Shown here: in pieces, positions 2,860 through 50,600 of the stretch
Position numbering within the stretch: the first letter of the stretch is position 1
How the letters are laid out: each line of letters starts with the position of its first letter
Assembly: GCF_018139145.2 (NCBI RefSeq)
Contig: NC_059473.1
Location: forward strand, 2,480,001-2,544,000
Length of the DNA stretch: 64,000 bases
Reading direction: 5' to 3'
DNA from: Gymnogyps californianus
Taxonomy: Eukaryota; Chordata; Aves; Accipitriformes; Cathartidae
Notes under the pieces: model-generated
What the model was told of the DNA's origin: nothing
The model's input: only the letters and a program-made list of their open reading frames with translations
Database searches by the model: none
Position numbers and translations under genes: made by a program

Positions 2860-4720
2860 CAAAAAATAAGTGAAAGGCCAGTGTTTCTAAGTCTTGGTAG
2901 GCTTGAAATATTTTCCCTGGAAGGGAGAAAAAAGGGCTAAGAAACTACTTTGGTTTCCTTCAGACTGTTCCCTCAGAACCTTAGTGCCAGCTGGAGACAG
3001 TGTGGATCTCCATGTGCAGGAATCTGGGATCTGCATGAAGGGAGGAGATTGTAGGTCACAGTTTAATCTGATCTCAGATACAAACCAACACAGGTGGTGT
3101 TGATTCCCTAGAGGGGCTGGAATAAGTTCTGTGTCACTGCATAAACTGCAGCGTTGTGAAACTGGCGCTTACCTTTCTGACCTTGCAGACAACATCTGCT
3201 TACCTAAGCTTCTTGTCTTACTCCTGAAATTACTCTTGCCACAAGCCATGTTTCCTGCCTTTTAGAAGGTGCTCCCTGTCTCTGCATGTACGGCGACGCG
3301 TTTAGACTGCTTTTGTGCTATGCAAATTTCTTCCTCAGTGGAATGGTTCACTGTGAGGATTTAACCTATGGACCAGTGCCATCCATCCTGTGTGGATTCT
3401 GGATTGAGGATTTGAATATAGATTTTGCTTCCTACCAATGTAACATAATGAAATACACCTTTGGTTAAAAAAATGCCTACAATCTGTGGGATGGAGATGA
3501 GTTCCAGATCCCCGTTCTTATTCAAAGTTTGTGGCCAGACTAATCTCTGTGTAGAAGAAATGGGTAAAACTCATGAGGAGACAGCCAGGAGGTTGTATTT
3601 AAAGTTTTTGAGCTTCAGGTCTGAATAAGAATAATGAATAAAACAATGTCAGTTGATTCTGTTATATCATAATTAAGTTCTTAGGCATCCACTTTCCCCT
3701 CAGAGAACTGTGGAGCTGATGTTCTTTCTGTCAGAGTGCAGATAAGATTTGCCAGGTTATCTTTCTGAGCAATTAATACAAGTAAGTTCACTGATAGTTT
3801 TGATATCCGCTGTACATCTTCTTGCTTCAGTTTATCCAGATTTCTGCTGTAGATTGGTGATCACAAATTCATGTGGGATGAGATATGCTCAGAATAGAGA
3901 TATGAGACCTCCAACATATCCACGGATGTACTGGAGGATCCAGATGCTTTGCTCTGAGCCAATGTTCAGCTGAGGAATTGTGGTGTTAACAGAAATTGTG
4001 TTGGTGAGGGCTGTGTGCTTCAGGTGAGGTCTAAATCAAGGCTCAGGTGCAAGAACCCAAAGAGCCGCAAAGACCTGTCAAATTAATATTTTATAAGTGG
4101 CCTTCTACTTACCCAAATGTCATACGCTATTAAAATTGGATATGCTTCATTCAGTTCCTGAGTGAATTGTTGTCTATTAACATTATATGCTGTCCTTTGC
4201 TGTGTTCCAGTTCAGTGTGGCTTCTGTTCCATGAGCGAAGAAAAGATTCCTCTCTGTCTACTTTTTCATTTGGTCTCATAGATACGTACATATAAATCAG
4301 TATGCATATTTTTTGTGCGTATATTATAATAATACAAAATAGATTGTAAATAATTTTGCAGTACTTTGAAATAAGGTACAATGTAAGTGACTATTGTCAT
4401 TATCACTATCTTTGTATTTTAGGTATGTCTTGTAAATCTTTTGTGAAGAGAAACACATTGTTGAGGTAGCCACCTCAGGCAAGAACAGTCCTCTTTTCCT
4501 TCAATTTTTTCCCCCAATCTGGTTCTAATTGCACTGCCCTAATCTGGGAGGGAGTGAGGTGTCCCACTGAACAGCACTAATACCTTTAGATTTCTCTCTA
4601 AAGGTAATACTGTGTTTTTGTGAGAGAGCTGTCAAGTTTTTGGTGGGTGGACATTTAGCACATATGTCATCATTACAATATTGCAGCTATTCATGTTAGA
4701 AACTCATAGATGCTTGTTTA

Positions 4721-4799
4721 GATGCTGAAGGCAATGCATTAGGAACTGATGGTGACTGATTATTATCCAATCAGTTCCTGATGCAGTATCTGCGACATC
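4721..4799 (-). ncRNA. MIR217: microRNA precursor miR-217
   Basis: This is a 79-nt foldback on the minus strand. Two 30-nt arms (4770-4799 and 4721-4750) pair at 23 positions plus 3 G-U wobbles around a 19-nt loop. The mature 5p arm maps to 4766-4788 and starts TACTGCATCAGG, the known start of vertebrate miR-217, with seed ACTGCAT. The 3p arm maps to 4730-4751. Compared with the human precursor as I remember it, both arms are identical and the loop differs by about one base. A CNNC motif (CATC, about 18-21 nt beyond the 3p end) sits where the SRSF3 site that aids Drosha cleavage is normally found. It is the last of the three hairpins in the direction of transcription, about 3.3 kb beyond miR-216a. 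It is processed by Drosha and Dicer and loaded into Argonaute; mammalian miR-217 is known from pancreatic acinar cells and endothelial ageing. Confidence 0.97.
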
Positions 4800-7700
4800 A
4801 AAAACTCTGTGGCTTTGGTTACATCTTAATTTTTTCAGTTGCAGTGTCCCCATTTAATGTCTTCTTTTAAAAATTTTAAACTTCAGGTGTTGAGGCTTAA
4901 CAAGGGCAGTGTACTAGGAAGAAAACTGCTTAATTGCATCACTCAGTTTTTTAGGAAATGTATACCTTTCTTTTATCTAAGAATTACTAAGAATAAATAT
5001 TACTGAGAATCACTCTAGGTAGCACTGCTAGAGAGCATTACAGATCTTATACAAGTTTTACTTTATTCAAAACTGTTGTTCGTTAGTTGAATAGTTTAAC
5101 ACAAGTTAGTCAGCAAGTGTTCTGCCTCTCAAAAATGCAGGAAATGATGTAGGCTTACAGCAGGGCGAGTCTGCAAATTCAGTAAGTGTTTGAGTAGTGA
5201 AATTCATGAGAAACTATAACCTTATGCCAGCGTGTACGGGCTTTCTGTATGCAGCATTTTGGCAATGAGAACTACAGACCTAATGTTACTATCCTGTTTC
5301 TCACACATTTTCTGGATCTAGAAAGAACACCACATTTGAAAGGAATAATCTGGTTTCAGGCCTGAGTCTTGATAGCTAGCCTCTATATTTCCACTGGATG
5401 AGTATGTGCCAGGTATGTCTGTCCATTTGCTGTAGATCTTACTGTACTGAGAGCAAGTAACACACACAACATAAGCAGAATATGGTCATCACAGCCCTCA
5501 GACATCAAGATTTCTGCTTTCACCCACTTCTGTTTGAAAGAGTGCAGTCAATGGTTTTGGAGATAGTTGGGTTTTGAATTTCTGGTACAGGCCTAAAAAG
5601 AAATAATCTGGAATTTGTCTGACTGTAACTAATTCAATTAAGTCGCTCTCCTCCACAGAGGTGCCCTGGCTATGTCTAACCAGCAGACTGAGGTTCAGTG
5701 CTCACTCATGTTGCCAAGGTGGGCTGGAGGAGGATAGCTGTGCGTGGCCTGTGCAGAGCACTGTTTCAACTGGTATACACTGATGTGGAGATTCAGGTTA
5801 GAGCTCCCTGTAATGTGCCACACTAGCTCTCAACAGAGGCTGATGTATCAACGTTGTCCCTGTGTCTGTGATCTGCCAACTATTCCCACTCTGTCCAGTT
5901 CAGAGTGGGTCTGATGCTTAATCACACCATAAATCACTTCTAAGATGTATTTAAATTTTTTTTTTTTAGTTCAAATCAATGTCTCCTGAGTTTCAAGGCT
6001 GAAAATTAGGCCTGACTGGACAGTATTCAAACATTTGACCAAAACCTGTGTTTAGCCAGCGAATGTTTGGTTATTTTTTTCTAATATCTCCAAATACATT
6101 ATTTGTAAGAATCAGCAAAATGAACCTGAAATGAGTCTTCAGATTACAATCTGTTCTTGTCAACTGTTAAGAGTGTCGGTCCATAGCTCTAGGTGCAGGT
6201 GTATGACTGGAGCACACACTGATCTTTAGAAATTCTACAACATTTTTTGCAAGCCATATATAAACTGGTAACTCATTTTGTTATTGCTTCAGTGTCACAA
6301 ATGCCATGCAGTCTGCTAGGTCTGTCTGTTAAAATATTCTGCAATCTGTGTCCCACAGTGATCTAGGTATTTGCACTAACTGGAACTTTGGGTATGGAAG
6401 AAAAATGCTTACAGTGAATAGGGGAATTTAAAGAACATTTTCCAGGGGAAAACAAACCATGTCAGCTGACATCTGGTGACTAATGAGAGTGTTAACTAAG
6501 TCCATATAAACATAATGGACAAACTACACTTTTATATCAGAGGTACTTTTGTTAGCAGTTACTGAGGTAGAAATAGCATCACTTCACCAGGGCTGTTTCA
6601 GATAGTGCACTTTCATCTCAGAATGATTTTCTTCTAAAATTTTGCAGGACTAAAAAGAGCTTGTGTCATACCTGTTTTTACTGAGCACCAACTTCTGTAC
6701 ATCAGAGTGAGCCATCTTTTATCAGGTTCCTTTGATCCTTAGCATGACATCAATAGCTTCTGGCAGACTACAGATGCTCCCTGGAATCTCACATGTAAAT
6801 AAAACTTAGGGAGAGATCTCTACGGATTGGCCATCTGGAGCTTTCAGCCATAAAATTGTGGTGAAATGAATATAACTATTTTATGTGCACTGGCTATATA
6901 TAATACTCCTTTCTGCTGGGTATCCATAGGCTGACTAAAGCCATCTAATGTTAATGGGAATCTTGCATTGATTTCTGCATCTTTGGATTGGGCTGTAAGT
7001 AACACAAGCATTGCAAGCGTGAATAATAATAATAATATAATTGTGGCTAAGGAGCTGGCATATTTGTTTGACAGCTTTGGAAAATCATATGTGAGTGGCA
7101 TTTGGTAGCAAGGAGGGTCTCTGCTTTCCATAATACTGAATATATGCTTCAGCATAACAGGATTTGTGTTTGATTACTTGGTAACTAGCTAACTCTAATG
7201 ATATTCAGTATGCAGCCAGAGTCAGTGATGACTTTATTGTGAATGATGATGTTTTCTTAAATTAATGGGGTTGAATTAGAGACAGAAGATATTGCTTTAA
7301 TTTGCTTATTTATAATGGTATCTCTAGTTACATTTTAAAGGTAGGTACGAGCGAAATGAGAACTACATAAAGGTAGATTGTACATCTCATTTTCCAAATA
7401 TTGCATTAATGCTTGGTACCATAAATATGGACATAGATATGATAGCTGTGTTTCTTGAAATGGTAGGTAATCATTTGTTCCTCTTCAGCATGTGAACTTC
7501 AACTTTAAAAAAGTTACAAGAATCCTGACTGGTTTGAGTTGGGACATTACCAAGGTCATAAACGCAGGAAAAATTGATTGCAATGGTTTTGGGTAATGGA
7601 AAATTCAGCGTAGATGGTGGTTATGGTGGAATACTAATCTTTGAACTTGTGACAAGACAGGGATGAAATGAAAAGTCTGGGCACAGAACTTTGTTTGTCT

Positions 7701-8070
7701 TAAAAAACTCAGATGCGAAGGATTAAACACAGAAAAGCCATCGTCTGCCCTACAGTTCGGTGTTAGACCAATGTTTTCAGAAGGTGTTTTTACAAGTAAC
7801 ATTTTCAGTGGGGATGAAATGAGATGTGATTTCAGAAAAAATTGTTAACCCAGTTAACACAGAGATTGTTCTGCTGCTGCAGGATGGTGCAACAGTGAAG
7901 CTGGGAAGGGTAGGAGTTACCTAGGCAAGGTCTGGAGTTCAGTGTACTTAATGGTTTGAATTAGCCACGAGGTTAATCTTGTGTGCATGGTGTGTTTGGA
8001 TTTTGTGTACTGCAACAGTATCTCTTGGTTCTGTAAGTTAGGTGCCACGCAGGTCTACTAAGCCATTAGA
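4800..8070. other. Noncoding spacer between miR-217 and miR-216a
   Basis: No gene or further hairpin is recognised. It lies inside the presumed primary transcript. It holds a T-run near 5958-5968, a short AAT microsatellite near 7022-7036 and one probable degraded interspersed repeat (6936-6998). The open frames present are short and unconvincing. Confidence 0.7.
6936..6998. repeat. Degraded old interspersed repeat
   Basis: The segment reads as a run of 'TTAATGGGAA', 'GCATTGATTTCTGC' and 'TTTGGATTGGGC'. This is a decayed form of a phrase common in sauropsid DNA, in which 'CCATTGACTTCAATGGGA' blocks precede a 'GGATCAGGCC' block. I recognise the phrase but cannot assign a Repbase family. Similar remnants lie at 11131-11173, 25126-25192, 42681-42750 and 61738-61891. 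Confidence 0.45.
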
Positions 8071-8171
8071 GCAAAGAAATTGCTGTGTTTAGCATAATCC
8101 CAGATACCACTGTGAGAGAGTTATTAACTGCTCACAGTTGCCAGCTGAGATTAAGCCAATTCACAGCCATC
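8071..8171 (-). ncRNA. MIR216A: microRNA precursor miR-216a
   Basis: A minus-strand foldback. The mature 5p arm at 8132-8153 begins TAATCTCAGCTGGC, the known vertebrate miR-216a-5p start, with seed AATCTCA. The 3p arm at 8094-8115 begins TCACAGTGGTATCTGG. The outer stem continues with GATGGCTGTGAATTGGC on the 5' side, also as in the human precursor. Compared with human from memory, the 5p arm is unchanged, the 3p arm has one substitution (A where human has C), and the loop between 8116 and 8131 differs freely. It sits 3.3 kb upstream of miR-217 and 5.8 kb downstream of miR-216b in the transcript's direction. The mammalian form is a pancreas-enriched microRNA. Hairpin ends are approximate. Confidence 0.97.
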
Positions 8172-9049
8172 CAGGTTAGGCCTGCAAGTGGATTCATGTC
8201 AGCTAAGTTTCTTCCCTGAATGTCCTACACAGGAAAAAATGGCGTAATTCCACAGACAACACCTGGTACTGTGAAGATCTGTCATTAAAACATTTAGGGT
8301 CTCTGTGCATCTTCTCTGAGAGAAGTATTATTCAGCAACTCCATTTGTTGAACTGAGACCTAGTTTATTCGGTGATCTTCGGCATGCCCCAATCTGCATG
8401 TAAACTGATAAAGCAGACTTGTTCTTTCTGGTTCAGCCTCTGCTTATTTGGCTTCTCTTGTATAATAGGGAATACAATAAAATATAAATTCAAGGGAACT
8501 CTCTAACTTCTGAACAAAAAACATTTGTGTAAAGCATCTAAAAATGATGTGCATGTTTTTTCAGCTCCTTACACTTACCTCCTTTTATGCTCCTATAACT
8601 CTGCTGATCAGTGCTTTCAAACCAGGGTAGCACATCTGAGCAGAGAACTATAACCAAATCCTGCTTTTGTGTTTGGTCATTATGGAGCTCTGTCAGTAAA
8701 TCTGATATGTTTAGAAATAAAATACCAGAACTGCACACAAGAACAGTCAAGAATCAAAGAAGTTGGATGTACTAGAGATATTTGATGAAATTAGAAGAAG
8801 AAAAGTAGATATTGAGAGATTGTTCCGAAAAAAAGCTGTGAGAACGTTTTCTGAAGGATGAAGTAAAATATAAGCTTGTTTCCTAGAGCTGATTACCTGC
8901 AGAACATGATAAGCAAGATCATTCACTTTATGTTTTGTCATGATTTGCTGCAACATCAGAATATTGTGGCAAGGAGAGCCAACTGCTTTTTTCCCTGCAG
9001 GCTCTATGGGCAATATTGTGCTCATAGTGTCTTGAAGAAAACTAGCGTC

Positions 9050-9390
9050 ACCCTACCCCCAGCACATCAGTGAGGGCTGCCATGCACTTAGGAGGACTGC
9101 AGAGTGGGTGTAACAGCAGCAGCACTGACACCATGTCTGCACACCATGTCCGCTCCATGGGGTTCTCTGGGGCTGCTCCTCTGTGGTGCGATGGAGGGGC
9201 AGGAAGCCTCTGGCTGATGGAGGGGCAGACTGCGGGGCCGCCAGCAATTCCTGGTGAAATCTTTACCCTGCGCGAGCCCTCCAGCAAGCAACAGGATGTG
9301 TGTTTGGATCAGATGTTTTTGCAAGGTTGGGCTGCTTTCCTTACCTTGTGTACTAAAACCGTGAGGCCCACAGAATACAGCCTGTACCAT
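9050..9390. other. GC-rich patch with overlapping open frames
   Basis: Base composition shifts to GC-rich for about 340 bases in an AT-rich neighbourhood. Frames of 108 codons (plus, 9070-9396) and 100 codons (minus, 9088-9390) overlap, which is typical of GC-rich noncoding DNA where stops are rare. A 13-base direct repeat, GATGGAGGGGCAG, occurs at 9190-9202 and 9216-9228, and CpGs sit near 9187-9275. The peptides match no family I know. It may be an exon of the host RNA, a decayed retroelement, or a local GC fluctuation. Confidence 0.4.
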
Positions 9391-11130
9391 CGCTGATGTA
9401 AAGCTGTTGATTTTTCTCTGGGAGAAATCCTGTGCATAGTGCAGCCTTGGAGCATACTGGCAGGAGAGCGACTCAGAAAATCCTCAGAAAAAACAGCCTT
9501 CTACTGGAACAAACCAGAGGTGGGCTTGGCAGGTGGTCTGATTATGTTTGCTCAGCCAGTTCAACAGTATTTGCTGGACAAAAGAAGGCATCAGGTGATA
9601 CAGAAAGTCCCAAACAAAGCTCCAGATGAATACAGACATGACCAGACTTTCTCATCTGTTGCATATCTGTGAAAGTGGAGGAAAACTTGTGGCTAAAGGA
9701 GAAGGCACAAGAGCAAGAAGGCATATCGCTTCTGTTGATTCTTGTGTGGCAGGCTACTAAACACAACACCACTGAGAATTCAGATTTTTTTGTGTTCCTT
9801 TTGTAGTACTTAAACTGTTTTCCATCGGTGACAGAAGAGTTAAAACCATGTGGGGTAAATTCTTGTAACTCCTCTTCTTGCTCGGTCGTTTTCGGCCTGC
9901 ATCTTTTTCTTGCTGCCATCCCTGTATGCAGTGCTAGCTATCATGCAAATACAATTTTGACATGGCACTGAAATCATAGTCAAATGGCGGTGAATGGAGG
10001 ATTAGATTACGATTTTTTTATTTGAACCATTTAGGCTTCCAAATGTACGTTTGTAGAACTTCTGTGGAAGGAAAGGCTCCAAAGGAGCAGGAGGAGACCA
10101 TTTCTAGATAGGAATTTAGGGAAGCATTACTACAGCGTGGTGTAAATAGATATAGATTAATACTACGTACAGAAGGTACCTGCGTAGGTTAGATGTCTTT
10201 CCAAGGGTAAACTTCCATTTTCTGTTTTCTGCCTCGTAGCTTCTCTATGAGTGAGAAGGTGTTCCAAGTTTCTGAAAGATGTGGAGTACCTTTCACTTTT
10301 CTATGGTGCATAAAAACCTTATGGTAAAAGAATGTTAATCTTGCTCTAACGCATGTAATCCTGTAATTTGAAATCTGTCTCACACTGCGAAGGCACAGAG
10401 GGGACAGAGTAATCGCACACAGGCAACCTTAATTCTGGCACTTTCTAATTTTTCGTTGCTTGACTCTTCAACCTCGATGATCTTTTGACATAGCTTTTTC
10501 TTTTATTTTTTACGTGGATGTAATAAGATTATGAAATGAGTGTAAGACTGATTAAAAGAGAGTTTAGAACTTCCAGCTTGAAGATCAAATAATCGAGCCT
10601 CAATATTTTTCATATTTTAATTTGCAGTGAAAATGTCTAATGAGAAGTTCAGACATAATGAAGGTTTTGCTTACATTCAGAGCTGGATAAATAGTAGGTG
10701 GTGCTCCAGTTCTGCATGTTGCTAAAAGTAAAGAATCAGACTTTTAAAAAAAAAAATCAGTAAAGAATAGATAGTTAGTATTTGAAACCTGGGCAGCTCT
10801 ACAGGAAAAGAGATCTCTAGTAGTTGGTGGCAGTCATCACAATGTTGACTTGGTGCAGCTGCAAAAGAGTTGTGTTACCAGTTTGTACGTTACCCTTACT
10901 GGTGGCAAGTGCTTAAGAATTTTCTTTCTCTTTTTGTAAAAAGGGATTTTTTTAGTATGTGCTATTTAATTTTCCACTATTTAGCACGATGGGTTCAAAC
11001 TAGCTCCCTAGCTTTAGTGCTGGGTGACAAATTTTATGTCTTGTTTAAAAATATTTGCTAATAAATGGGTAGATGGAAATAGGTCATTAGAGTAAGGATG
11101 AAAGGCTTCTGGAGGAATCCCACAGAAAAC

Positions 11131-11173
11131 AATGCAAAAACTTGTATTGATTTCACTGGGGCCCAGATTTTAT
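11131..11173. repeat. Degraded old interspersed repeat (short remnant)
   Basis: It contains 'TTGATTTCACTGGGGCCCAG', close to the 'TTGACTTCAATGGG ... GGCC' phrase shared by the other remnants in this window. It is too short for a firm family call. Confidence 0.35.
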
Positions 11174-13934
11174 CCAGAAAATAGTAAGTGCACATTATAG
11201 GCATTGGCATAATTACTCCAGTTTTATGATAAGATCTTGAAACTTGCAGAAAAAGGTGCTTTTCTCTTTCGTGCATGATATTTTAGTTAATACAATGGCA
11301 GCATTCTGAAGATAGATGTGTGAAAGCATAGGTAATTCTGGCAGTATGACAAGATAAGAAGTATTTAGAATGATGTCAGCAACTGAAAACATACAAGATG
11401 AACCTAGAGAGCCTCTTAATCAGAACAGTAACAAAAAAAATCATATAAAAATAACGAAGGGATTAAAATTTTAGATAAACCTAGAGTGATTCTAGCATCG
11501 ATTTGAGTCAGTTCCTGGAGCAAAGCTTTGATTTCTTTCTCAGGGCTGGATTTGCCAGCATAGCTTCTCTTTGATGCATTTCTTTATGAATCTAAATGGA
11601 TGGGCAGGTTGCATATTATTCATCAACAGCATTTTTGGAAATGTATGGCACCATATTGGTATCTCTGCAGGGCTTGGGCTGACTGAATAATTGAAGATGG
11701 ATTTAAAATATTAGAGTGGAATAGTCAGAAAAATTTTTAAAAAATCATACAAAATAACTGATGTTTTTATTGCACAGCACATTTTATGGCTTATTAAAAC
11801 AGTCACTGTGAAGACACAGTAGACAAGAACAAGTTGGCTTTAATAAAAGTAAGGATAATTTATAAGGGTCTGATTGGGGAAGATGTGTTGGTTCCAATTG
11901 CAATTCTGCCTCCAGTCCCAGAACTAATATTTAAGGCTTGTGTTGAAACAATCATGATATGGAAATGAATGGGGCTTTGCCTTTGTTTTGAGTTATTCTA
12001 GGATATCGCCACAATTTTTATTTGCAGATGCTGACATGCCAATTGTACCTGCATGCACAATTATCAGCCATAATCATGGTAGTTGCACATGCTTGCCCTC
12101 ATCATTTGTCAATTAACACTTGTTTGAGAAGAATAGATTAAACTCATACCTTTATTTCAGTTTTTATGTAAATTCCAATCTAGAATAAAGGTGGTAACTC
12201 TACTGGAAGAATAGTGGTTTGCTGGGAAGTGCTGGGAACTGGAAAGTCACATAGCAAGGCTGTTGTGCAGAGTAAGCATATATCTCTTGTAAACAGGGAG
12301 AACAGAGGAGATGTAAAATGAGGAAGTAATAAAAAAAGTGTGGGAATCACTTTGGAAATAAAACATATCCAACTGATCCTTTTCAGTAAGGGGTGGGGCA
12401 CAGCTGCTGGATTTTGTGGAGTTTTGCAATGAGAGCTTGAGCCATGCCTTTTCCCTGCCTCGGTGTCGTGCTCTTGCCTGTTCTTCTATCTAAGTAGTAT
12501 TTGCTTTATGTGCCCTCCTCCTGGAATAGCGTCCCTGCACTTGAAAACACCAACATCTTCTCCGCTGCTCCCTTCCCCTGGAGCTAGTAGCAAAGCAGCA
12601 AGATCAGAGGAAGAGGCAGTTTGGCTTCCCCTATGCCCACAGTAGCTGAGGTGAACCCTAAGTGACATCCTTACAGCCCAGGTAAATATTTGACTTCTCA
12701 GCAGGATTGCAAGTGGATATGATGGGTCTTCAAAGTGACAAGTGTTGTCTAAGAGTCCTCTACCGTAGCGTTAACTGAGAAGATCAAAGTCTTTATCTGA
12801 CTTGCAACCCAGATAAAAATTGTGATCCTGCTTGCCTCTGTCTTCTTGCATGAACAGCTCAGCATCACCATTGATGTCCTTTCATGCCAAGTTGTCCTCC
12901 TATCCAGCTTTTATATAAGTTTTGTTTAGGTGGAATGAATTTTCCAGAGGTCTGTCTTCTGGAGTGTGTAGGCACAAATTCTGGTACACAGTCACTGGGA
13001 GGTGAACTGGGCCCATTCAATTCAATGTTATGTTAACTCTGAAGCACAGAGAGGATATGTGTGCAGTCAGCTTCTCACGGGCTTTATTTGCGTCATCTGT
13101 ATTGTCCTGTTAAAACTACACGCCCTTGCTGTTGCTACACTGTAGTTCACAGTGTCATCACCTGAGAATGGTGATGAAAATAAGGCCATGTGTAGGTATG
13201 GCATAAGATTATTTCTGTGCATACATAAGCTTTTAGGAATGCATTTCTGAGCAGGATCGACGCCTTGATGTTTCAAGAACGTTCAAGAGTTGCTGCCTTC
13301 CTGAGCCCTAATAAATATTTGTCCAACTATGAATCTGTTGAATGTCATTCAAGTAAGATGAGCTAAAACTTCCCAAATATCAGATAGTTCTAGGAACATT
13401 TTAAGTGAGGAAAAAAAAAGTTACTCTCTTCCATTCGTGAAGGCCTGCATTGCTAGGTATCCTCTTATCTGAAAAAAGAGATGTTTCTTTCAAAGTGACT
13501 TATTCTTGCTGCCACTGTGTCCAAAGCTTGATTTTAGAACCAAACCGGTCTTCAAAGCATCATAATTTTAAAAAAGCTGAACTCATCCAGCGCTGCATGA
13601 ACTAATCACCCATGAAAACCCAGTTGTGATTCAGGTTCAGTTAACAGTAGGTGTAGCCTATTAATGGAATATTAAGCCCTCATAGTTGAAATATAGCCTA
13701 TAATAACTTTGTCCTTTAGTATACAGATGTTAACAGTACTTTTCCAGTGTCCAGTGGGTTAATCTATGTAGTTTTTATGCTTTTGTTTTCAATTTTTGGC
13801 TCATGAAAATTATTAAGAAAAAAGCTTGCAGTCAGCTACATGCTATTCAGGCAATTTGGATTGAATTCAGCTCAACTCAGCAGAGGTGCAGAAGATGAAG
13901 AACTGTATACTTTATAATTACTGTGTACAAAGAT

Positions 13935-14015
13935 GCCAGATTGTAGAATCTCTACAGGTAATTGTGAGATTGCTATAAAGACATCACATTTGCCTGCAGA
14001 GATTTCCCAGTCTGC
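13935..14015 (-). ncRNA. MIR216B: microRNA precursor miR-216b
   Basis: An 81-nt foldback on the minus strand. The mature 5p arm at 13984-14005 begins AAATCTCTGCAGGC, the known vertebrate miR-216b-5p start, with seed AATCTCT. The 3p arm at 13944-13967 contains TTACCTGTAGAGATTCT. The basal stem pairs GCAGACTGG with a CAATCTGGC segment. From memory of human, the 5p arm is unchanged and the 3p arm differs at about three positions, mostly near its ends. It is the first hairpin of the cluster in the direction of transcription. Its seed differs from that of miR-216a only at the last base, so the two should share many but not all targets. Confidence 0.97.
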
Positions 14016-15584
14016 GACTTTTATCCAGGTTGAAGAAGAGAGAGAAATATTTTCTTTCTACTAGTCCATGTAATATTTTAAACTGAATTTCAAATAAAGT
14101 GTTGAAGAAGGTTCTGTGGTTGAAATACCAGATGTTACTCCTTAGAAGTTTTCAAGAAGACTAGATAACTGTATTGATAATAATTAAAATATTGTTTGGT
14201 TCCGACACTCTGCATTCACAGTCTGTGTGGATCCCTGTCTTCCAAAGGTTGCCTTTCAGATGCCTCACAATCACCTGGGACTTGATCTGGCTGAAACTGA
14301 GAACACTTTTCCTCTAAATTTCTGTGAATGAGTACGTCTTGCCCCTGACTCTACTACTTTTTTTTGGTCTCTACTAGAGCAACTGTAATTTTCCCCTTTC
14401 CTTCTCAACATACATTCTGGTTGTAATCAAATGGCAGTGATTTCTTTTCTGTAAACTTTTCTCTCTGTCCTTTTTTTGTCTAGTTGTTGGTGTTGGGAAA
14501 GAAAGGAGAGAAAATTTTTAGTCTCCTCCAGTCATCATCACCACCCCTTTGATTGCTGCAGCCATATGGAGGTTCTTTGGTACTAACCTTCTCTCCCCTT
14601 CAGTCGATGTAATTCTCACCTCATTTATGACTCTCCCACTTGTTATAGCTTGTTGTGCATTTTTACATTTAAATTGGGCATTCTTTGAGGCACAGATTAT
14701 GAATAGACTTGTACTGTGCGGGTGTTTGAAAAAATGAAAAAAAACCACAAATGAGAGGAGATTAATTGTGGACTGTATAGTTTCTAACACTTATGCACAA
14801 GAAATAAAAAAGAAAAAAACCCCCTACTTTATCCTATTTTAATGCTCTTTTTGTGAGCAGCAAAGGAGGCTATAAAACCCACAGATTAATTTACTCAGTT
14901 CTGGTGTGGAGCTTTCATTTTAAGAGATTTGTTTTTGCCAATGCTAAGTGATCCAAAGAATTTGAAGGATGAGGAACAGATCTTTGGTGTCTTTTGCTGT
15001 GAAAAATCTTTAATGTGCTTTAGAAGGAGATTAAAGACCACTATTTATTTCCCTTTGTCTTTTGGAAGTGAAAGGATGTTTTGTACCAAACTCTTGAAAA
15101 ATTCATGCAAAAAAGTCTCCATAAGATTTGACTCACAGTGACTGCTTTTACAGTATAAACAAATGAAAAACAGCTTGTGTCCTTGCTAAGCAGATTATCA
15201 GGAGAGGTTGAAAAGGTTCTTTCTGGAGAACAACTCATTCTTGTAATTTTTTGTAATGCTAGTGGAGCCTTAGGAAAGTGGAAATGAACACACAGAGCCA
15301 CATTTTCCCCTCACCACACCCTTCAGTATCAGAGAAATCAGCTTGTATTTTGTAGAAAGAAACTGAGGTTATGGAACATCTCAGTTTCACTGCGACTTTT
15401 GCGTGTTTATTCTTTGCGTTCAGCCTATTAGTTAGCTTGTCGTATGTGTTCTGTCCCTGCGTGTGCGCTGCCCCTCCTGACAGCTGCTGGGGAGGCTTTG
15501 CACAAGTAATGGAGATGCATCATACCTGCTCTGTGGTTCCTTTCAGCACAGGAACTTTCAATATAGCCAGTAATAATTTTTGTA

Positions 15585-41879: not shown

Positions 41880-42680
41880 GTTTGAGGCCCCAGCTGATTC
41901 AGTCTGCATCCATCCATACATAAATCATTGCCCTTATTCTATTGGTTACATGGTACATGGCAAGTATTGATTTTTTCCGTTGCCTCATTGCTGGAGAACC
42001 CATGGTTTTTGTGAGACTGAAAATGCAAAATTTTTTGCTGGAGATCTTGTCAAGGTACAAAAATGACAAGCGAGGAGGGTGCTATTTTAAGGTTTGTGTG
42101 ACTTAAAAATCTTCACCTTCTCTGTTCTACTCTACATTTGCCTGTGTCCCAAAAAGTCATGGCTTGTTTAATCACTACTGCTTTAGGTAGGCTTACTGGC
42201 TAAGCAGCAGGAGAATAAGCAAACAGAAACAGGGCCTGGCCATTCTGATGAAGGCATTACTTAATTATTAAAAGTTTAATTATCTTCTGAAACAGTAACA
42301 AAAAGATAAAGAATAATATGAAAATAATGCCATTTTAAGGGAAGAAATGAATCCTAGGCACAAGATGATAATATGCTGTAGAAAAATGGACATTTGTTTC
42401 CTTTCTGCATAACACAGAGATACAATATTGTGCTTAATTCTCGAGGTAGTTCTTCGTAGCATTTTGAAACATACTTGCTAACCCTTTACCAGTATGATTG
42501 CTGTATCGAGTTATTTTTTCTCAGCATTCAAAGCTGCCTGAAAATGTCTCACAAAAGATGGCACCTTGTTTCCTCAAAAAAGTGTTTTTGAGGAATAGGA
42601 AGACTGGGTTATGAGACAGATTATGAGATGTTCTCCTTCAGTAATAGAGAATTCCCTGGTATAAGACTTTCTCTTACTAA

Positions 42681-42750
42681 GAGCCTGATCCAAAACATAC
42701 TGGAAGTCAACAGGAATGTTTTCATTGACTCCGTAGGTGCTGGATCAGCT
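42681..42750. repeat. Decayed inverted-repeat element (MITE-like)
   Basis: The left part CTGATCCA and the right part TGGATCAG are perfect inverted repeats about 50 bases apart. Inside them, GGAAGTCAA on the left answers TTGACTCC on the right. This is the clearest copy of the sauropsid phrase seen in degraded form elsewhere in the window, and it shows that the parent element was palindromic. A nonautonomous DNA transposon is plausible; I cannot name the family. Confidence 0.55.
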
Positions 42751-45507
42751 TCAGATTACACAGAAGCAAATATTGGATCCTTTTGGATACTGTCACTTTC
42801 CCCTATTTTGAAGAAGTGAAATGGGTTAGGATGGGTGGTTTATAGATGGATGTAGGATATTATTATTATATTTAATCTGATTACATCTTGTAACACTTTT
42901 AAATGAGATGTATGCAAGTGCGTGTGTATTTTCTTTAATGCCTGTAATGCAAAATCTGAGCCATGCCTACCCTGTGCTATTCCCAATTACTATATTTTGC
43001 TTCTGTGGGTTTTTTTTGCATTTGAAAGCCACTGCCCATTCTTCTTTTTACCTACACAACCTTTAGACTCCAGTCTTTCACCAAATGTTGTGTGGACTCC
43101 ATTTAAGTCATTTTACCTGACTTCTGCCAATTGCAGAAGCACCTGCCAAAGCAGGTGATATTTTCTATCTGCTGTTTGCATGCAAATCAAATACCTTAAA
43201 CAGTAATACAGCTTTAGAGCTTTTGTGTTTCTGGGGCTGTAGAAATTGAGCATAAAGCTAAAATTATCCGTAAGAAATCCCAGCCAGACACCTTCGCTTG
43301 CTGTATGGCACATACAGGAACTGAAGAAGTAGTGTGCTGCTGGTCCTCTGGTTGAGAACCAGGGCTGGACCATTCAACCAGCCCTTCCCTGAGCTGGCTT
43401 TGCTCCTGCAGGAAACAGCTTACACTGACCAAAACCTTGGGTCGTGCTGGAGTGAGCCACCTCCCCCATATTTGACAGGAGCAATTGCTTCCTTACAAAT
43501 GCACTTTTTTCCTCCAAATGTATGTTGCAACTGTTTTGAATATGTAACTTTAAAAAAAAAAAACAGTAAGACTGGGGGAAACATTAATTTTGGATTCAAA
43601 ATAGTTCATATAATTTTTCTTTAGGAAAAAGGGCTGGACATTGCCATTAGCAAATGAGCTTCTTGCTTCACCAGAAATGTAGTTTCACTGAAAAATGTGC
43701 CTTTTGTCTCACTGTAAACCGTAACTTTTCTACTGTTTCTGTATACATACAGGCCAGATCTTCATTATATTGAACAGTAATTTTTGTAGTAATTGAAATG
43801 AGAACACTTCTGTAATCTTTGTGACAGTGACTGTGTACAAAAGGGCTTGTTACATGTCTGTGTATTACTCATTCAAACCAATTTGCTGGTTTAAGGTCAC
43901 TCCTTTAACATTTATTAGTAAAAAAGGAGGGTTATTTGGCTAGCTGAGGTATCCTTTATCAGCATAGCACCAGTAGTTCAGTGGTTATAATACAAAGAAA
44001 AGATACTGAAGAAATACTAGTCTAAATTTGAATATTACCAAGTGTATTTCATTGGTTTCTTATAGAGTATCAGGACAGAAAATGCTTTCGGAATTGTCCC
44101 CATTTCCCAAGCTTTTAGGACTCATCTTCTATAGGCGCATGGTTCCCCTGTATATGTTTCCCTGGAGCCACCCAGCCTGAAGTCCGGGCATTCACAAGCC
44201 AACTAGCCTACCTATGTGAAAATAGTTTTGCTGTAGTCTATGCTCCTCCTTAAGCAAGGTGTATTTGCATCACAGCTGTGGATGTTTTGGTTGAAAGCTT
44301 GGCAGACACTGCACACATACAACACAGAAATACATTATGTACATGCTCCTCACCATCACCATTGTTTGCAGTTTTCTTTTCCTTTGAGATGCTGCATTGT
44401 GTTTTCTGTCAGTCTTTTGTGTAGAAGGATGGATGCTCTGCTCAGTGTAACCAAGCACACATGCATCACGCTTGCCAGTCCCCACAGTACCGACTCAGGT
44501 ACTGGCTGAGGTAAGTTTTTAGTATGACTTGAGGAGTTCACTTGTTACTGGTCAAGGGAATAAGGCAAGTCTGAAGATGCTAAAGTCAGTGCCAGTGAGG
44601 CAAGAATTGGTCTTATTCACTGGGTTTTTGTAGCAGAACTGGCTGCACAAATCATTCCTGAAAGTTCCTCTGCATGATGCTAGATTGATAGCTCTTGAAA
44701 GCTTAATGTTCCCATATCATAGGTTATTGTACGAGGGTCTGGACAAGGGAACACCTTAGATTTCTTCCTCTTGAAAGGAACATAAGTCCCTCAAGAGCCC
44801 TGTAACAGTCCTTCCAGTGTGTCTGGGAAGTCGTCTCAACATTGCTGGTTGTTTTCAGAAAGTGGAATATAGACAGCGTGATCCCAGAGCGTGGAGCAAC
44901 ACGTCATCCTCCTTCAGATATTATGGAAGAGGCCGTGCCCACTGGTCTGCAGGAAGATGGGCAGTTATAAGGAGTGTGATGGGATTTTCTTCACGCTGGT
45001 CAGAGACCCCTAGAAAGGGGAGTCAGCTATTCCCTGGGCTGGTACCACTGCCTTTGGTGGCTGCTTATGCTTGCTAACAGACACATGTAGGTGGCTGCAC
45101 TAATCTTGTGGACAGCTACACCATGCTCCTAACCCAAAGCCCATGCTGAACTGTTGTTGTGCATGCAGCAGCCAAACCCTAATCATAACCCTTTTCTGTC
45201 CTGCTTTGTAATAGCAAGATGGGGTTAGTACAGCCAATTCAGCCAACTTCTTTGTGCATATCTCTTTTGGAGGAAAGTAATGTTGATTTATTAATTTCCT
45301 TGAAGATGGGCATGAGAATTAATAAATAACAATGACAAGAGGTAGAAGGGATTTTTCCTGTAGCAACCAATAATAATATCTTTGTTGAAAATACAAATGA
45401 AAAGAAGAGACAGAACTGCAAAGCATGTTTGTGTAAGATAGAGCTGAAGCAGCCAGGGACATTAACCATTCCCTGAGCAGAGAGGGCAGAGCAGCTGCCC
45501 TTTTCCC

Positions 45508-46471: not shown

Positions 46472-47607
46472 TGGCTGTGACAATTACCAAACAGCTGTCC
46501 CAGGAATCTACATAGCCTTTAACCTCCGTCAGCTGAAAGATGGGCTGATGACAGCTAACAAACAATAGAAACACACCCTAATATTTTATTTAAGAGCTGA
46601 GGGAAGCCACAGCTGTATGGATCATTCAGCCAGCTGGATTTAACTGCTTCAAACTGCATGTCCTGTCTTCAAGAAACTGCTCTATAGCCACGCTGTGTGT
46701 TTAAAGATGCATTTGGGTCTTTATCCTCCAAACTTCATGTCAAATAATTGAATCCAAACTATCAAGATAGGTTTTGCTATTGTGCAGGAATGGTAAGCAG
46801 CTAATTATCAAGTGGAGTTTTTATTTATGAAGCCAGTGATTTACAAAATTTTCTCATTAATAATTGTGTTCATCTTGGGTTTTTTCTGAATGTAACTGTT
46901 CCACTGATTGTCAGTGAGAGGGAGAACATTAAATATCAAAGTAATAAAAGAGTGATGTAGAATGAGGGAAAAAGCATAATTAGGACTGGCAAAATAAAAT
47001 TAAGGGAAAAAGAATACTGAGCTTGGATATTGAGAAGAGCTTCTTGATAATGAGGTGGATTATGTCTGGGGGTGGTTTCCCAAAGGAAACGAGGGAAACT
47101 ACCATCAGCAATGTGTGGAAGTAAACTGGAAACAGTGTAAAACACTTGAAATGTTAGATATGCTAATGCAGGTGTCAGTCCTGAGCAGTGGCAGTTGCTT
47201 CCCCCCCCCGTCCCTGCCCCTTCCATTTTTACTTTCTGTGATTTTATAATGTTACAAATAGCAGTCAGCAAACTTGCAACAAATTGCAAATGCAACATTT
47301 TATGCTGGTGCTTTAGATGCCCTGAGCCTGGAGAGATTTATGGATATGCCTTCTTCTACAAGTTCTGAGTGGCTCCTTTTAGTTTAAAATAGAAACAGGA
47401 AAAAGGTTTTTGGAAGTTAAGGGCCCCGTTCACATTTACAAATCCCAGGCATGCAAGCTGTGGCTGAAATGGCAGCGAGCTCAGTTTCTCCCTGCAGGCT
47501 CGATGCAGGTATCCAGGGGGAGAGTGTTTGGAAATCAGCTGTGTCTTGCTGCTGCTAGTCTTCCTCTAGCATATTGTAGTTGAGATATTATGAACTGCTC
47601 TGCTACA

Positions 47608-47674
47608 CTCTTTTTTTTTTTTTTCCCCTCCTTCTTTTTCTTTTTCTTTTTTCTTTTTTCTTTTCTTTTTCCCC
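47608..47674. repeat. Long polypyrimidine tract
   Basis: Sixty-seven consecutive pyrimidines on the plus strand, mostly T with regularly spaced C. Such tracts are frequent in vertebrate introns and can adopt triplex structures when they have mirror symmetry. No function is implied. Confidence 0.9.
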
Positions 47675-50600
47675 TGCCATGTTCCATACGCCACAATAGT
47701 AAGAACTGGCTCAGAAAATTCTTCACCAGATTTCCACTGGCTGCAAGTTCACAAAGGAAATTTTCTCCTGGCCGTTTGTGGCCAGAAGCCTCCTCCTTGG
47801 CACTGGAGGATTCTTTAACCGGCTGGTCAAATTAGACTAGATTTAATTTGGCTACCTCTGCTTTTTTACATCATTTTAAAAGCAAAATTGATAACATTTA
47901 CCCTTTCACTGCACACAACTGTAATAACTTTTCAGGTACTCAGGCTATAGAGGAATTTTTGGTTCCTGAAATAGGTTAAAAAACGCCTTAGACGCATCAG
48001 CATAATTTCTACTGATAAAGTGACATCTCTCATGGCATGAGAGTGTTCCACTGCACATACAGACAGCTCTTCAGAGTGAGTCCTGCAAGAAGGAAATGTT
48101 GAGGACTGTGACACACCTGCAGGTACCAGTACACGTCTGCTTCTGTTGAGCAAAGTGTGCAATGAGCTGTCAGCAATAACACTTTTTCCCTCAGAACTTA
48201 AATTAAACCTTTTTATTATCAGTTGATTGAAAGTGAGTGGTGCTGAATATGTGAATGCTTAGAAAATGAGCAGAGACCTTGGAAATATTTATTAAAAAAA
48301 AATTGAAGCACGGTCTCTTGTTGATATTAATGACTTGTCATTGCCATCATTACACTGTCTTTACATGTCTGCTGTGGACATTTGGCCACGCTTATAAGCT
48401 CTGTTAACTGAGATGTCTGACGGAAATGGCACCGTGGTCATACGCAAATCAGTGCATCTTTGGGGAGAGCAGAATGGGTCTCAAACTTGTCACTGCCCAG
48501 AGTGTGGTTCCTTTACTGCTTTTGTGTATTCTTTGAGCTAAGCACCAAAGGTACTTTCACTCCTAAACTGATTATTGGCTTATTTGGGTATGAAGGGAAG
48601 GGTAGGAGATCACAGCGACTGTCTTGCTTGCACCCTGTCCTGCTTGTCATTTGTCTCCATGGTGGAATTTGATACAGGAAGGGTTTGCTGGGACATTCTT
48701 TCTGTCTCTTGATGACAGATGATGGTTGTCCTGTTTTCTGGCTGGTAGTTGGTTGGTTACGTTGACAGATGTTGCAATGATTCTTTTGGCAATATTCTGT
48801 TGTGCTGACTGTTCAAACAGGAAATTCATCTTTTAGTATTTGCACATGTTAAGTGTTTGTTTTAGTAGAAATCGGCTCTGACAGCAGGCTGGTCAAACAG
48901 TGTATTTTTGGAGCAGCAAACTCTGGAATTCTCAAAGTCCTCATCATCCCGTAGGTCTGCTGGTGCTCGGCTTGGAGCTCTGCTCCCTGAAATACCACAG
49001 GACTGACTTTTGAGGAGAGGAGACGTGAGCTTTTGAGCTCCGGGTTGCTGCTGTTTCACTCTTTTGGTGATGGGTGCCTGTGTGTGTTTGATGGCGCTCG
49101 GTTCAAATCGTACCATGGTATGGCACTTTGTGAGACTTCGTAAGGTTTGCTGTATGACAGAGTCTGTGCTGTCTTTGTTCTCCCTTTAGTTTCTGAAGAT
49201 TTGGTTTACTGAGCTGGCCTCTTGTCTAATGTTAACACAAGTGAACAGGAAGGTGGTTGTGGCTTGTGCTATACAGTAGAAAGTGAGGACATGCTCAGGA
49301 AGTATGGCAAGAAGTGCTTTTCTCCTAACAAAGACTAGCTGGAGAACTTAATCTGAGGAAGCTAAATTTCCATCTAAATATCTGTTTGGTGATAATCCCA
49401 TTTCAGGTGACTGCTTTTTGACCTTGGCAGGCAGCTTCTTTGAAGGACAGTCTGCAAACGCTGATGTGATTTAATGTGATACATTTTAACTTGTTTCCTA
49501 AATTTTCATCAAGCAAAGTTCTGTGGACTATTTGAGGGCTGAAAGTGGCTCTTTCTTGTATGCAGTGGCATTAGAGATACTCTGGCTAAGATCTGTTGTG
49601 CTGTCCTTCAGAAAAAGTTTATAGGATGTCAGAAGTTACAATATTTACTTCTGTAAGTATGGTGTCTGTGCTGAAGACAAGCACATTATGAGAAGTAGCT
49701 ACATAAAGATTTCTGGTGCATGTGGTAGAGGGAAGGTTTAATCTGGTCAAGACCTCTCCAGACCCCTTCACCGTCACCTAGTAGGTGAGAAACAAGTGGC
49801 TGCAAGTCGCATGTGAAAGCTGCTTTGTGTCTTGCCAGCCTTTTGGAAATACTTCAGAGCTACAGCTATTTTGAGTAATGGAGCTTGGAAGTGGAAAAAG
49901 GCTTTGTGGCAAGCCTAGCATATGCATTTCTGAGAAACACATTTGGTTCCTATATAGTTATTTTTGTGTAATTTGACAGGAAAAAACTAATGTTGAGGGG
50001 AACGTGCTCAGGTGAGTCAGATTACAACACACACGTGTATTTGCAATGTGTATATTTGCACACAAAAGTTACACAATTGCATGAATAACTGTACGCGTAT
50101 ATAACAAAAAAGTTTTCTTGATTTCTGCTTACAACAGTTTAGGTACAAAATATATGCCACTCATGAATTGATAAGAAAAACAGAAAAGTTTGTTAGCTAG
50201 TGAATCTTTGAAAATGTTACACCTGCAAGAAGGTAGAAGAATTCTTGAGAATCCAGTGCTGATTAGCATTGATGAAATATAGGAAATACTATGAAATATA
50301 TTCTTCGAAAGCTGACATGTGTGTATTCTGGCATTTGGAGTGATATTGTCAGTTTGGAACTTGCATTGATTGTTCACCAATTAGTTGAATTTTGAACATA
50401 TGTGGTTTCTGAAGACTTAGTGTCTTGCATGTTTTGACAGTTTTACTGATCACCAGGATTTTAGATGCTATCTTTCTATCTTGATTTATTATTTGTCTTC
50501 TCAAATGCACTCATCCTAGTCTCTGAGTAACAACACTGGTCCTGGAAGGGGCATGCTCTTTCCTAAAGAACTCAGAGGTGTTTTCATATATGTTGAGTGA

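What the first reader, a model, noticed from the sequence alone, without database searches (positions are those of the whole stretch)
4721..14015. Complete miR-217/216a/216b cluster on the minus strand
All three hairpins are found from their mature arms, in the same order and relative orientation as human MIR217HG. This identifies the locus in a window that otherwise looks like anonymous AT-rich DNA and predicts a pancreas-type primary transcript running right to left.
Basis: partly seen in the sequence, partly recalled or inferred. Interest (0 to 1): 0.85.

Follow-up and report, generated by a model that had tools for sequence, protein, structure and literature searches.

The report
Vertebrate miR-217/216a/216b microRNA cluster
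The stretch holds the well-known vertebrate cluster of three pancreas-type microRNA genes (miR-217, miR-216a, miR-216b), correctly spotted by eye; it is a conserved, already described locus.

Summary
Rfam's curated models find mir-217 at 4715-4807 (119 bits), mir-216 at 8087-8161 (80.3) and mir-216 at 13938-14013 (71.1), all on the minus strand. All three fold as hairpins, z -4.03 to -7.05. The listed order agrees with zebrafish, and a paper names a chicken pancreas-specific lncRNA with MIR217 in an intron as the ortholog of human MIR217HG. So this is an orthologous copy of a known locus. Transcription and pancreas expression in this animal are inferred; the species was not identified. One small extra: the opposite strand of the miR-216b hairpin also passes Rfam's cut-off (55.9 against 53.5), folds better than the sense strand (-35.9 against -30.1 kcal/mol), and would carry the same AAUCUCU seed. 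This is most likely a by-product of a near-perfect palindrome; a functional antisense miRNA is possible, but no expression data bear on it.

The parts
4715..4807 (-). pre-miR-217 hairpin
   Evidence: Rfam RF00673, 119 bits against gathering 70; 90 of 93 positions equal the Rfam consensus; fold -31.4 kcal/mol, z -5.06
4766..4788 (-). miR-217-5p mature arm
   Evidence: exact match, only one in the window within 3 mismatches
8087..8161 (-). pre-miR-216a hairpin
   Evidence: Rfam RF00654, 80.3 bits against 53.5; fold of 8081-8167 -41.7 kcal/mol, z -7.05
8132..8153 (-). miR-216a-5p mature arm
   Evidence: exact match, only one in the window within 3 mismatches
13938..14013 (-). pre-miR-216b hairpin
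   Evidence: Rfam RF00654, 71.1 bits against 53.5; fold of 13932-14019 -30.1 kcal/mol, z -4.03
13984..14005 (-). miR-216b-5p mature arm
   Evidence: exact match, only one in the window within 3 mismatches
13938..14013 (+). antisense miR-216b hairpin (candidate only)
   Evidence: Rfam RF00654, 55.9 bits against 53.5; fold of 13932-14019 plus -35.9 kcal/mol, z -6.16; 22-mer at 13946-13967 shares 18 of 22 bases with miR-216b-5p and the seed AAUCUCU

Best explanation
This is the vertebrate miR-217/216a/216b locus (ortholog of MIR217HG). One or more minus-strand non-coding transcripts, starting to the right of each hairpin they carry, pass through miR-216b, miR-216a and miR-217. Drosha and Dicer cut the three hairpins, and the 5p arms load Argonaute to repress messages by seed pairing (AAUCUC for the 216 pair). 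Shown: the three precursors, their strand, order and hairpin folds. Inferred from relatives and from general knowledge of miRNA processing: transcription, processing, pancreas-acinar expression and the extent of the host transcript.
For: Rfam hits; exact mature arms; folds; same listed order in zebrafish and the shared 216a/216b seed AAUCUC; chicken pancreas-specific host lncRNA with MIR217 in an intron; common host gene of about 40 kb in rat, mouse and human; the three mature miRNAs described as pancreas enriched, most abundant in acini. In the 70 longest of 242 stop-to-stop frames of 60 aa or more, Pfam gave one match, at E 0.0099, which agrees with a non-coding region; the other 172 frames were not scanned.
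Against: No expression data could be used. In mouse one paper places miR-216b on a separate transcript, so a single transcript for all three is not assured. No CpG-island-like promoter appears in the 64 tiles of 1 kb; CpG observed/expected is at most 0.5. No promoter or splice site was established. Folding energy alone does not single out 217 or 216b.
Confidence: 0.97

Rival explanations
1. The miR-216b locus is bidirectional: a plus-strand transcript would give a second miRNA with the same AAUCUCU seed, besides the ordinary cluster.
For: The plus strand of the 216b hairpin passes the Rfam cut-off (55.9 against 53.5), folds better than the sense strand (-35.9 against -30.1), and its 5p arm keeps the seed; of the three hairpins it is the only one whose plus strand holds its own sense seed.
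Against: A near-perfect hairpin read backwards is again a near-perfect hairpin; the antisense of mir-217 also scores 57.5 (cut-off 70) and that of 216a 32.6 (cut-off 53.5), and 217 too folds better in antisense (-34.0 against -31.4). No evidence of plus-strand transcription. Two paper searches (62 papers, 20 listed; 1 paper), judged from titles and abstract starts, showed no report of it.
Confidence: 0.05
2. The three matches are chance or decayed copies (pseudogenes) of the miRNAs.
For: By folding energy alone sense 217 and 216b rank only 38th and 31st of 646 hairpin candidates in the window.
Against: Three full-length Rfam matches in the known order and on one strand, with intact mature arms.
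Confidence: 0.01

Closest known systems
MIR217HG locus of human and mouse (miR-217, miR-216a, miR-216b)
   Same: Same three miRNA families; the one-strand order is the same as in human by recall.
   Different: The hairpins span about 9.3 kb here; the human span is larger by recall (about 18 kb), not checked by any search. Host transcript not mapped here.
Chicken LOC107052837 (ENSGALG00010019651)
   Same: Pancreas-specific lncRNA with MIR217 in an intron, called the ortholog of human MIR217HG (PMC10951430, section 9 read).
   Different: Chicken sequence could not be aligned here; whether the window is chicken or another vertebrate is open.
Zebrafish miR-217/216a/216b clusters on chromosome 22
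   Same: Same members and listed order (PMC2427041, passages).
   Different: Zebrafish has two clusters, listed among miRNAs that reside within 3 kb of one another; here the 5p starts are 3.4 and 5.9 kb apart.

Membership tests
mir-217 (RF00673) | Covariance-model score at or above the gathering cut-off of 70 | tested here: met
   119 bits, 4807-4715 minus
mir-216 (RF00654), two members 216a and 216b | Score at or above the gathering cut-off of 53.5 | tested here: met
   80.3 and 71.1 bits on the minus strand
mir-216 (RF00654) | 5p arm with seed AAUCUC | tested here: met
   seed from PMC2427041; arms exact at 8132-8153 and 13984-14005
miR-217/216a/216b cluster (MIR217HG type) | Order 217, 216a, 216b on one strand | tested here: met
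   coordinates and strands; order in zebrafish listed, in human recalled
miR-217/216a/216b cluster (MIR217HG type) | Pancreas-enriched host transcript | not testable with these tools
   no expression data for this genome; described in papers for chicken and mouse
miR-217/216a/216b cluster (MIR217HG type) | Conserved flanking genes | not tested
   no credible coding match in the 70 of 242 frames given to Pfam; nothing beyond the window could be read

The most novel reading that the evidence does not exclude
The miR-216b hairpin is read from both strands, giving a sense and an antisense miRNA that share the seed AAUCUCU, so the locus would act on the same targets whichever strand is transcribed.
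Probability: 0.04. Interest if true: 0.45.

Novelty: already known. Interest (0 to 1): 0.12.

Why it matters
It fixes the identity of an otherwise anonymous vertebrate window and gives exact coordinates for three conserved miRNAs. In mouse a 27.9-kb deletion of this host gene was lethal to embryos, while single miRNA knock-outs gave live births (PMC6668398, passages), so the locus matters biologically. The finding itself adds no new kind of element.

Tried and rejected

Other copies of the cluster: the miR-217 5p pattern gave 0 matches in genome contigs and 0 in viral contigs, as expected for prokaryote and virus collections. The 216a and 216b arms were not searched there.

A further RNA: at E up to 1 the window gives 10 rows. 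Six are the three loci on both strands. Four weak rows lie far below their cut-offs: mir-3477 and mir-12, which overlap the known hairpins, RMST_5 at 12585-12713, and mir-1677 at 42679-42754. They were rejected as cross-matches or chance.

Promoter logic: a PTF1-like composite motif (recalled, from no call) gave 4 places against a mean of 1.5 in 60 shuffles (the number of shuffles reaching 4 was not counted). One, at about 6465 minus, lies between 217 and 216a; the other three are on the plus strand at about 17970, 28884 and 45494. Not strong enough to claim.

Bird repeats: the recalled CR1 tail unit occurs only singly, not as a tandem pair; no repeat of 35 bases or more with a 14-base seed in the window; no tRNA.

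Coding: the 70 longest of 242 frames of 60 aa or more were scanned against Pfam, 1 match at E 0.0099, treated as chance.

Papers: six searches. Of those opened, PMC4159003 (passages) had nothing on the cluster's layout or an antisense product.

Full report
Observation. Rfam 15 finds, at curated cut-offs, four matches in the whole window: mir-217 at 4715-4807 minus (119 bits), mir-216 at 8087-8161 minus (80.3), mir-216 at 13938-14013 minus (71.1), and the same last place on the plus strand (55.9 against a cut-off of 53.5). All three fold into hairpins better than all of 200 shuffles each. Energy alone would not have found them all: in a tiling of 21,304 windows of 90 bases, sense 216a is 2nd, sense 216b 31st and sense 217 38th of 646 non-overlapping single-loop candidates with 24 or more pairs.

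Identity. The 217 precursor equals the Rfam consensus at 90 of 93 positions. The first mir-216 copy carries the miR-216a arm and the second the miR-216b arm. The order 217, 216a, 216b is that listed for zebrafish (PMC2427041, passages) and, by recall, that of human, on one strand.

Surroundings. The window is 34-45 percent G+C in 2-kb steps, strongly CpG-depleted with no 1-kb tile above 0.5 observed/expected, without tRNA, without repeats of 35 bases or more at a 14-base seed, and without a credible Pfam domain in the 70 of 242 open frames tested. That fits non-coding vertebrate DNA. The strongest hairpin of the window, plus strand 9157-9246, lies in a G+C-richer kilobase (48 percent); a frame there (9046-9393 plus) has 6 relatives with E up to 0.001 among 9 candidates, 63-97 percent identical, without names. 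It may be a dispersed repeat or conserved host DNA present in other public sequence; this was not resolved.

How it works. By orthology: minus-strand host transcription from the right, processing by Drosha and Dicer, and repression by the 5p arms. In chicken LOC107052837 hosts MIR217 in an intron and is pancreas specific, described as the ortholog of human MIR217HG (PMC10951430, section 9 read). MIR217HG is said to span about 40 kb in rat, mouse and human (PMC9229466, passage). In mouse the 27.9-kb deletion is lethal near E9.5 and single knock-outs gave live births; the miR-216a knock-out also lost more than 95 percent of miR-217, and miR-216b is said to be on a separate transcript (PMC6668398, passages). 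Transcription in this species is inferred, not shown.

The antisense hairpin. The plus strand of 216b folds at -35.9 kcal/mol (z -6.16) against -30.1 (z -4.03) for the sense strand; for 217 the values are -34.0 and -31.4, for 216a -30.8 and -41.7. The plus-strand 22-mer at 13946-13967 matches miR-216b-5p at 18 of 22 bases and carries AAUCUCU at positions 2-8; the plus strands of the 216a and 217 hairpins do not hold their own sense seeds. Because a hairpin read backwards is a hairpin, and the antisense of mir-217 also scores 57.5 bits (below its cut-off of 70), the simplest reading is a by-product of palindromy. The Rfam consensus of mir-216 folds better in the sense direction (-32.6 against -27.9) and that of mir-217 about equally (-34.8 against -35.1), so the reversed preference at 216b is a detail of this copy or of 216b in general; relatives were not at hand to tell which. 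Two paper searches, judged from their listings only, showed no report of an antisense miR-216b.

Verdict. A correct and well-read identification of a known conserved locus; low novelty.

Noticed in passing
13938-14013 plus strand: Antisense strand of the miR-216b hairpin passes the Rfam mir-216 cut-off and folds better than the sense strand, keeping the same seed in its 5p arm.
   Followed up: partly
9046-9393, both strands: G+C-richer stretch with the strongest hairpin of the window and a plus-strand frame that has six unnamed relatives (63-97 percent identity) in public sequence; perhaps a dispersed repeat.
   Followed up: partly
42679-42754 minus strand: Very weak mir-1677-like match (26.6 bits against cut-off 84), probably chance.
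   Followed up: no
47535-47831: Pyrimidine-rich run (TTCTTT-type repeat at 47632-47671) that gives a lysine-rich open frame on the minus strand.
   Followed up: no
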